Source: an uncultured Fusobacteriaceae bacterium
Lineage (GTDB): Bacteria; Fusobacteriota; Fusobacteriia; Fusobacteriales; Fusobacteriaceae
Length of the DNA: 64,000 nt
Assembly (NCBI GenBank): GCA_947038515.1
Contig: CAMQWJ010000005.1
Location: forward strand, 1 to 64,000
Direction: 5' to 3'
The notes beneath the pieces were generated by a model. It was not told the DNA's origin. It was given only the letters and a program-made list of their open reading frames with translations, and made no database searches. Below, piece after piece: positions 1 to 24,604 of this stretch (position 1 is its first letter; each line of letters begins with the position of its first letter). The position numbers and the translations under genes were made by a program.

Positions 1-55
1 GAGCAACTGACTTGTAATCAGTAGGTGGTTGGTTCGATTCCGACACAAGGCACCA
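1..55 (+). tRNA. tRNA-Thr (anticodon TGT), 5' end outside window
   Basis: Only the 3' part is present. It begins in the D stem, followed by the anticodon stem ACTGA/TCAGT with loop CTTGTAA (anticodon TGT, reading ACA), a T arm with GTTGG/CCGAC around TTCGATT, the 3' acceptor strand ACAAGGC, discriminator A and an encoded CCA at 53-55. The 5' acceptor strand lies upstream of the window, so its pairing could not be checked. Confidence 0.93.
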
Positions 56-60
56 TTTTT

Positions 61-143
61 GCGAGGGTGGCGGAATTGGCAGACGCACCAGACTTAGGAT
101 CTGGCGTTTCGACGTAAGGGTTCAAGTCCCTTCTCTCGCACCA
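61..143 (+). tRNA. tRNA-Leu (anticodon TAG)
   Basis: Complete 83-nt class II tRNA with encoded CCA. The acceptor strands GCGAGGG and CTCTCGC pair with one G-T. The anticodon stem CCAGA/TCTGG encloses CTTAGGA, giving anticodon TAG (Leu, CUA/CUG). A variable arm follows, then the T arm AGGG-TTCAAGT-CCCT. It lies five bases after the tRNA-Thr gene and is probably co-transcribed with it. Confidence 0.96.
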
Positions 144-23943: not shown

Positions 23944-23980
23944 ATAAAACCTCCTGTATTTATAAAATATATCTGATTTT

Positions 23981-24010
23981 ATAATACCATTTTATATAGA
24001 AGAAAAACAA
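23981..24010 (-). promoter_or_regulatory. Candidate promoter of pepA
   Basis: On the minus strand TTGTTT (24010-24005), an 18-bp spacer and TATTAT (23986-23981), about 40 bases before the pepA ATG. It is back-to-back with the kdsC promoter. Confidence 0.5.
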
Positions 24011-24028
24011 TAGAAAAATAAAAAAATA

Positions 24029-24037
24029 TGGTATAAT
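24029..24037 (+). promoter_or_regulatory. Extended -10 promoter of kdsC
   Basis: TGGTATAAT gives an extended -10 (TG-n-TATAAT). No good -35 is seen, which extended -10 promoters tolerate. Transcription from here would include the hairpin at 24068-24094. Confidence 0.65.
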
Positions 24038-24063
24038 GTACGAGAATAGAAAATTCGAAAAAA

Positions 24064-24103
24064 GGAGAATATAAAAAAGTAAATTTTTTATATTAAAAAT
24101 ATG
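24064..24103 (+). promoter_or_regulatory. Shine-Dalgarno and hairpin controlling the kdsC start
   Basis: GGAG at 24064-24067 is 33 bases from the ATG at 24101, too far for normal initiation. Between them, 24068-24078 and 24084-24094 form a perfect 11-bp all-A/U hairpin with loop GTAAA. Folding would leave six bases (24095-24100) between GGAG and ATG, an ordinary spacing. No other ribosome site is seen in front of the ATG. Confidence 0.6.
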
Positions 24104-24604
24104 ATAAAACTAATAGCTTTAGATGTGGATGGAACCCTAACTGATGGGAAAATATGTGTTGGAAATTTAGAATATGAAACCAAAAATTTTTCTGTTAAAG
24201 ATGGATTGGGAATTGTTGGAGCTATGCAAAACGGAATAAAAATAGCTATAATAACAGGAAAAAAATCGGAAATAGTAAGAAAAAGATGTAATGAGTTGGG
24301 AATAGAAGAGGTTCATCAAAAAATACATAACAAAATAGAAAAATTGAAAGAACTTTGTGTGAAATATGGTATAGAATCAAGTGAAGTTGCATATATGGGT
24401 GATGATTTAAATGATTATTCTGCAATGAAATTTTCTGGATATACTGGAGCTCCTAAAGATGCTGCTGAAGAAATTCTTGAAATTGTTAATTTTATTTCAA
24501 GTAAAAATGGTGGAGAGGGTGCAGTAAGAGAATTTATAGAGACTATCTTAAAACAGCAAGGTCTTTGGGAAAACGTAATAAATGTATATAAAAATATGAA
24601 ATAA
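24101..24604 (+). CDS. kdsC: 3-deoxy-D-manno-octulosonate-8-phosphate phosphatase (KdsC-type HAD)
   Basis: A 167-residue C0-type HAD phosphatase that releases Kdo from Kdo-8-phosphate for LPS inner core. Motif I LDVDGTLTDG (nucleophile Asp8, Asp10), motif II IITGKKS and motif IV GDDLNDYSAM are present, with no cap domain, as in KdsC tetramers. YrbI-like neuraminic acid phosphatases look similar, but the KdsC-style GGEGAVREFIE C-terminus favours this call. Translation initiation seems to need a folded leader (see the site at 24064). The downstream U32 gene follows after 12 bases. Confidence 0.88.
   Translation: MIKLIALDVDGTLTDGKICVGNLEYETKNFSVKDGLGIVGAMQNGIKIAIITGKKSEIVRKRCNELGIEEVHQKIHNKIEKLKELCVKYGIESSEVAYMGDDLNDYSAMKFSGYTGAPKDAAEEILEIVNFISSKNGGEGAVREFIETILKQQGLWENVINVYKNMK

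What the first reader, a model, noticed from the sequence alone, without database searches (positions are those of the whole stretch)
24061..24103. Hairpin places a distant Shine-Dalgarno next to the kdsC start codon
Seen: GGAG (24064-24067) is followed immediately by a perfect 11-bp all-A/U hairpin (24068-24078 / 24084-24094, loop GTAAA), then exactly six bases and the ATG. Unfolded, the spacing is 33 bases; folded, it becomes normal. Known: hairpins that shorten SD-start distance have been described in phage and bacterial mRNAs. Inference: folding is required for kdsC translation, so a weak A/U stem might make Kdo phosphatase synthesis sensitive to temperature or to helicases, opposite in sign to a usual RNA thermometer.
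Basis: partly seen in the sequence, partly recalled or inferred. Interest (0 to 1): 0.6.

Follow-up and report, generated by a model that had tools for sequence, protein, structure and literature searches.

The report
Hairpin-bridged ribosome sites in Fusobacteria
In this Fusobacteriaceae genome the kdsC gene and roughly a dozen or more other genes have their ribosome landing sequence too far from the start codon, with a small RNA hairpin in the gap that would fold the distance away; this trick is known from two phage T4 genes, but here it looks like a recurring chromosomal feature of a bacterial phylum.

Summary
There is no closer SD. A sister species has the same gene order and promoter but no hairpin, with its SD next to the ATG, so the palindrome was most simply inserted between SD and start. 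For kdsC alone, chance is only about 0.6%. What makes it convincing is a class. In 1.26 Mb of this genome, 18 of 93 distant-SD spacers in genes without a near SD carry SD-hairpin-ATG (2.1 expected from shuffles), against 5 of 318 in genes that have a near SD. Other examples include fabH, dnaB, metG and thiD. Removing the hairpin leaves 5-13 nt, overlapping normal spacing. A subfamily with core GUAUGAUA...UAUCAUAC, its stem kept by compensatory and G.U changes, occurs in 60 of 98 Fusobacteriota genomes and almost nowhere in about 90 genomes from outside the phylum. Best explanation: hairpin-bridged ('split') ribosome-binding sites, as shown for T4 genes 38 and 25. The temperature-sensor idea is not supported: most of the stem is predicted >85% paired at 50 C. 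No experiment has been done.

The parts
24032..24037 (+). TATAAT, likely -10 element of the kdsC promoter (predicted start of transcription about 24044; inferred)
   Evidence: 18-bp block AAAAAATATGGTATAATG identical in the sister species G002/L034; a strong -10 with a weak -35 is the rule in F. nucleatum (PMC11005410)
24061..24067 (+). Shine-Dalgarno sequence AAAGGAG, 33 nt from the ATG if unfolded
   Evidence: no other SD-like sequence between 24068 and 24100
24068..24078 (+). 5' arm of the hairpin, AATATAAAAAA
   Evidence: predicted -5.2 kcal/mol at 37 C for the hairpin
24079..24083 (+). loop GTAAA
24084..24094 (+). 3' arm of the hairpin, TTTTTTATATT
24095..24100 (+). six unpaired bases AAAAAT between hairpin and start codon
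24101..24604 (+). kdsC, KdsC/YrbI-family HAD phosphatase, 167 aa
   Evidence: TIGR01670 above cut-off; start codon supported by relatives

Best explanation
The kdsC leader is a hairpin-bridged ('split') ribosome-binding site. The 30S subunit pairs with AAAGGAG; the hairpin directly after it folds out of the path, so that the AUG sits about 5-6 nt from the SD instead of about 32. It is one of roughly a dozen or more such leaders in this genome (about 1% of genes), and Fusobacteriota in general carry a scattered set of them, many with a shared stem core GUAUGAUA...UAUCAUAC. Shown here: the anatomy, the statistical excess restricted to genes that lack a near SD, residual spacings overlapping the normal range, hairpin presence or absence between orthologs whose start codon stays the same, and compensatory and G.U changes in the core subfamily. 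Inferred: that the hairpin forms in vivo, that ribosomes use the distant SD, and that unfolding lowers translation. The most economical history is that short palindromes were inserted into, or arose in, the SD-AUG spacer and were tolerated because folding restores the spacing; regulation need not be involved.
For: (1) Class enrichment: among 93 distant-SD spacers from genes with no near SD, 18/12/7 have a hairpin with a stem of at least 7/8/10 in register; shuffles give 2.1/0.93/0.08, and the genome's own density of noncoding palindromes gives about 1.8 for 8 or more and 1.0 for 10 or more. (2) Internal control: 5 of 318 spacers (stem 7 or more) from genes that do have a near SD; Fisher P = 7.5e-9. 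(3) Geometry: normal spacing has median 6, mostly 3-12; linear distances in the class are 22-42, residual distances 5-13. (4) Sister species: same promoter, SD at normal spacing, no hairpin in kdsC; the same in fabH (G002) and, with a weaker G-rich SD, dnaB (G001), whose start codons are unchanged; ychF shows the reverse, with the hairpin in G040 and not in this genome. (5) Core subfamily: 94.3% of cells paired, 36 cells with double changes against 9.2 shuffled; in the six core pairs all 7 imperfect pairs are G.U on the mRNA strand and none A-C; yfcC orthologs in G006/G018 swap AAG/CTT for AAC/GTT. (6) Taxon spread: 60 of 98 Fusobacteriota genomes against 1 of about 90 genomes from outside the phylum. 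(7) The mechanism is demonstrated in T4 genes 38 and 25 (PMC3014915).
Against: No expression, probing or ribosome data. The kdsC hairpin is A/T only and lacks the conserved core, so it joins the class by architecture alone; for this single gene chance is 0.56%. The hairpin is not conserved in any kdsC relative found. Noncoding DNA here is rich in palindromes (about 2.4 per kb with a stem of 8 or more). Some class members are ambiguous: in rsmH the AUG inside the stem is in frame, and C4:91353 has a better upstream start. Sister G002 shows no clear excess in 400 kb (1 hit).
Confidence: 0.76

Rival explanations
1. Internal promoter: the palindrome is a DNA element (TATAAA here, TATGAT in the core subfamily resembles a -10 box), transcription starts inside or after it, and the mRNA has a short leader with no SD.
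For: TATAAA at 24070-24075 with TAGAAA 17 nt upstream is a loose match seen by eye in the sequence; TATGATA is -10-like.
Against: The promoter scan of 23944-24110 finds no + strand hit at its threshold. The upstream promoter is conserved in the sister. A strong AGGAGG or AAGGAG is kept 22-42 nt upstream in every class member, which an SD-less transcript would not need (though its presence was also the search criterion). Many members lack any -10-like arm. Loop length varies from 3 to 14, and core imperfections are G.U rather than A-C.
Confidence: 0.08
2. Chance or neutral palindrome: an A/T-rich slippage product in the leader with no role; kdsC is translated inefficiently from the A-rich leader or through the distant SD without folding.
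For: For kdsC alone the shuffle probability is 0.56% and palindromes are common in noncoding DNA. No ortholog found keeps it.
Against: The class-level excess is confined to genes without a near SD, and the members with the longest stems begin within 6 nt of the SD and end 6-10 nt before the ATG.
Confidence: 0.12
3. Operator for a DNA-binding regulator: the inverted repeat is a transcription-factor site that happens to lie between SD and ATG.
For: The recurring core TATGATA/TATCATA is a perfect inverted repeat and is found before many unrelated genes.
Against: The half-sites are separated by 3 to more than 20 nt, whereas dimer sites have fixed spacing. Some members differ by paired changes (ATAATA/TATTAT, GTGATA/TATCAC), and wobble is strand-biased. 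kdsC lacks the motif.
Confidence: 0.05
4. Decoy or upstream-ORF switch: when the stem opens, ribosomes start at the AUG inside the 5' arm (AGGAGG-N2-AUGAUA) and make a short peptide; when it is closed they use the true AUG.
For: Many core-subfamily members carry AUG 2-7 nt after AGGAGG, and the frame from it often ends within 4-15 codons.
Against: Cannot apply to kdsC, which has no AUG in the stem. The SD spacing of the inner AUG is mostly shorter than normal. It could coexist with bridging.
Confidence: 0.1

Closest known systems
Phage T4 genes 38 and 25, split ribosome-binding sites (reviewed in PMC3014915; Nivinskas 1999; Malys and Nivinskas 2009)
   Same: Distant SD brought to a working distance by a hairpin in the spacer: 22 to 5 nt for gene 38 and 27 to 11 nt for gene 25; the gene 25 structure is confined to the close T-even phages. 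Here 33 to 6 nt for kdsC, also confined to one lineage.
   Different: Two genes in a phage against many chromosomal housekeeping genes in a bacterial phylum; a subfamily with a recurring stem core; no experiments here.
Polyamine modulon of E. coli (oppA, rmf and others; PMC7177335, PMC4191411)
   Same: SD distant from the AUG, with leader RNA structure deciding whether it can approach the start.
   Different: Bulged, metastable structures that respond to spermidine; rmf SD1 is only 11 nt from its AUG. Here simple perfect hairpins directly after the SD; no ligand tested.
RNA thermometers such as fourU or ROSE elements (own knowledge)
   Same: A hairpin at the ribosome-binding site.
   Different: Thermometers hide the SD and melt near 37 C; here the SD and AUG are predicted free and the stem stays mostly paired at 50 C.

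Membership tests
T4-type split (hairpin-bridged) ribosome-binding site | SD farther from the start codon than ribosomes accept, with no closer SD | tested here: met
   33 nt against a genome median of 6; no SD in 24068-24100
T4-type split (hairpin-bridged) ribosome-binding site | Hairpin between SD and AUG whose removal leaves a normal spacing | tested here: met
   6 nt from GGAG (5 in AGGAGG register) remain for kdsC; 5-13 in the class
T4-type split (hairpin-bridged) ribosome-binding site | Stem supported by evolution (compensatory change) | tested here: inconclusive
   Met for the core subfamily; not testable for kdsC, which has no ortholog with the hairpin
T4-type split (hairpin-bridged) ribosome-binding site | Destabilising the stem lowers translation | not testable with these tools
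   needs reporters
RNA thermometer | Structure melts in the physiological temperature range | tested here: not met
   Pair probabilities 0.80-0.98 at 42 C and 0.68-0.94 at 50 C
RNA thermometer | SD or AUG sequestered in the cold | tested here: not met
   SD unpaired probability about 0.7-0.9 and AUG 0.66-0.99 at 20-37 C
Intrinsic terminator | G+C-containing stem followed by a U run | tested here: not met
   No terminator-like site; the stem has no G-C pair
Curated RNA family (Rfam 15) | Match above gathering score | tested here: not met
   Only tRNAs in the window; none of 7 class loci matched

The most novel reading that the evidence does not exclude
Fusobacteriota possess a recurrent translation-initiation module, an SD directly followed by a GUAUGAUA...UAUCAUAC hairpin that bridges to the start codon and hides a decoy AUG. 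It has been gained repeatedly in front of unrelated genes (identical copies before different genes in G074; densest in this genome) and could act as a shared translational control point through a helicase, RNase or RNA-binding protein, or spread as a tiny RNA-level parasite.
Probability: 0.3. Interest if true: 0.82.

Novelty: new variant of a known kind. Interest (0 to 1): 0.62.

Why it matters
SD-to-start spacing is treated as a one-dimensional rule in gene finding and in models of translation. A phylum that repeatedly bridges a 22-42 nt gap with a hairpin would show that ribosomes tolerate, and genomes exploit, a structured spacer on chromosomal housekeeping genes, not only in two phage genes. 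It gives dozens of natural constructs for testing how the 30S subunit accommodates a helix between SD and AUG, it would make start-site prediction in Fusobacteria more accurate, and existing F. nucleatum transcript maps could be re-read for it.

Tried and rejected
A mobile repeat was considered for the kdsC palindrome: it is unique in the genome with up to 3 mismatches. Rfam: no match. Terminator and promoter scans: nothing on the + strand. The same spacer test in G002 (1 of 22 spacers without a near SD), G013 (0 of 7 in 182 kb) and G018 (2 of 43) shows little or no excess, so high density is a property of this genome, not of every relative. C4:91353 was dropped as a false positive because an in-frame ATG with a near SD lies upstream; rsmH is kept as ambiguous. 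The outgroup control has a weakness: most of those genomes are probably richer in G+C than Fusobacteriota, and the 'order' control turned out to be the group around Phascolarctobacterium; the reversed-pattern control inside Fusobacteriota (44 against 4) is not affected by this, but part of its forward count is ordinary starts beginning AUG AUA. The R1 counts include the training leaders (8 of the 15 in this genome). Paper searches found no earlier report of a genome-wide class, but subscription journals are mostly missing from the library.

Full report
WHAT IS THERE. The gene is a 167-aa KdsC/YrbI-family phosphatase, followed by a U32 peptidase and pgpA, in a 27.5% G+C Fusobacteriaceae genome of 1.78 Mb. 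The start codon is secure: relatives align from residue 1 or 2, and an in-frame stop lies at 24080-24082. The next upstream feature is a TATAAT at 24032-24037, inside an 18-bp block that is identical in the sister species G002. F. nucleatum promoters are described as having a strong -10 and weaker -35 box, and 85% of its 5' UTRs an SD (PMC11005410), so a transcript starting near 24044 and including the SD is the simplest reading.

IS IT CHANCE? For this one gene the answer is only moderately no. The spacer is all A/T except for the single G of the loop, and 0.56% of shuffles give an equal stem. I therefore asked whether the architecture recurs. In 1.26 Mb of the same genome I took 1,154 ORFs, separated genes with an SD 3-13 nt from any plausible start from those without, and looked for a hairpin lying in register between a distant SD and the ATG. 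Of 93 distant-SD spacers from genes without a near SD, 18 had a stem of at least 7 bp, 12 at least 8 and 7 at least 10; dinucleotide shuffles gave 2.1, 0.93 and 0.08. Because noncoding DNA here contains more palindromes than shuffles predict (2.4 per kb with a stem of 8 or more), I also used that density as the expectation: about 1.8 for 8 or more and 1.0 for 10 or more. The best control is internal: in 318 distant-SD spacers from genes that do have a near SD, only 5 had such a hairpin (Fisher P 7.5e-9). Hairpins sit between SD and ATG when the distant SD is the only one.

WHO HAS THEM. Other members precede ordinary genes (names from sequence recognition): fabH, dnaB, rfaD, thiD, metG, an acyl-CoA dehydrogenase, a site-2 protease, a yedF-like gene, a radical-SAM protein and others. 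Several of these proteins begin at a canonical N-terminus (ThiD MKNVLTIAGSDSCGGAGIQ, MetG MEKNFYVTTPIYYVNG), so the start codons are credible. Linear SD-AUG distances are 22-42; after removing the hairpin 5-13 remain, against a normal median of 6 with most between 3 and 12.

HISTORY. The sister species has the kdsC promoter and gene order, no hairpin, and GGAGGAGATAATG at normal spacing. Other relatives also have near SDs and no hairpin. fabH and dnaB behave alike: orthologs in G002 and G001 start at the same residue, without a hairpin and with a G-rich SD close by. ychF is the mirror image, bridged in G040 and ordinary in this genome. So hairpins come and go in the spacer while a working distance is kept.

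A CORE SUBFAMILY. About half the members share AUGAUA...UAUCAU at the base of the stem. A pattern with this core after AGGAGG occurs 44 times in 98 Fusobacteriota genomes, against 4 for the reversed pattern, eight of the 44 in this genome; most in other genera also lie 8-13 nt before the ATG of a normal gene. A covariance model built from 25 leaders finds matches in 60 of 98 Fusobacteriota genomes, most (15, eight of them training leaders) in this one, and in 1 of about 90 genomes from outside the phylum. Matches outside the training set are again bridged leaders: lysA, ychF, ftsY, NUDIX and other genes. In the model's alignment 94.3% of cells pair, with 36 double-sided changes against 9.2 when shuffled; the alignment was fitted to the model, so this leans towards the structure. 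In the six core pairs every imperfect pair is G.U on the mRNA strand (7, against 0 A-C), which points to RNA rather than DNA as the selected form. yfcC orthologs in two species of one genus show a G-C to C-G swap, and two ornithine cyclodeaminase orthologs differ by A-U to G.U. In G074 the same hairpin precedes different genes. The kdsC hairpin does not belong to this core subfamily (the model finds nothing in the window); it shares the architecture only.

MECHANISM. The best-supported explanation is a split ribosome-binding site: the ribosome pairs with the SD and the hairpin loops out the surplus spacer. This was shown experimentally for T4 genes 38 and 25, where 22 and 27 nt become 5 and 11 (PMC3014915). 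The polyamine-modulon genes of E. coli are a looser parallel (PMC7177335). The regulatory add-on is not supported: the stem is worth -5.2 kcal/mol at 37 C and stays mostly above 0.85 paired at 50 C, with SD and AUG largely free throughout. A helicase, RNase or polyamine effect remains possible but has no evidence.

LIMITS. Everything here is comparative. The class count comes from 71% of the genome and a simple ORF caller. Some members are ambiguous (rsmH). The excess is strong only in this genome; G002, G013 and G018 samples show a few cases or none. The outgroup genomes were not matched for A+T content.

Noticed in passing
L178, L280 and G074:C1:3446694-3446733: Three places in one genome (G074) carry the same SD-hairpin sequence AGGAGGATGTATGATAAATAATTTACTACGCTTTTATCAT; two were read and precede unrelated genes (a glycosyltransferase and a MerR-type regulator), which suggests copying of the leader.
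   Followed up: partly
L197, L199, L286, L287 (genus g19): A repeated family of secreted or outer-membrane-like proteins of about 500 aa whose copies share the leader AAAAAGGAGGATTATGATATTTTTATCATAAA(T)-ATG.
   Followed up: no
noncoding DNA of G000, 1.26 Mb sample: About 150 palindromes with stems of 10 bp or more in 109 kb of noncoding DNA, two thirds of them not terminator-like; their nature is unknown.
   Followed up: no
G000:C8:15950-16920 (rsmH): The AUG inside the stem is in frame with rsmH, so the hairpin may lie within the first codons of a longer protein rather than in a leader.
   Followed up: partly
core-subfamily leaders in this genome and relatives (L176-L204): Most core hairpins place an AUG 2-7 nt after AGGAGG inside the stem, heading frames of often 4-15 codons: a possible decoy start or upstream ORF.
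   Followed up: partly
window 1-140: Two tRNA genes at the left edge of the window, the first cut off.
   Followed up: no
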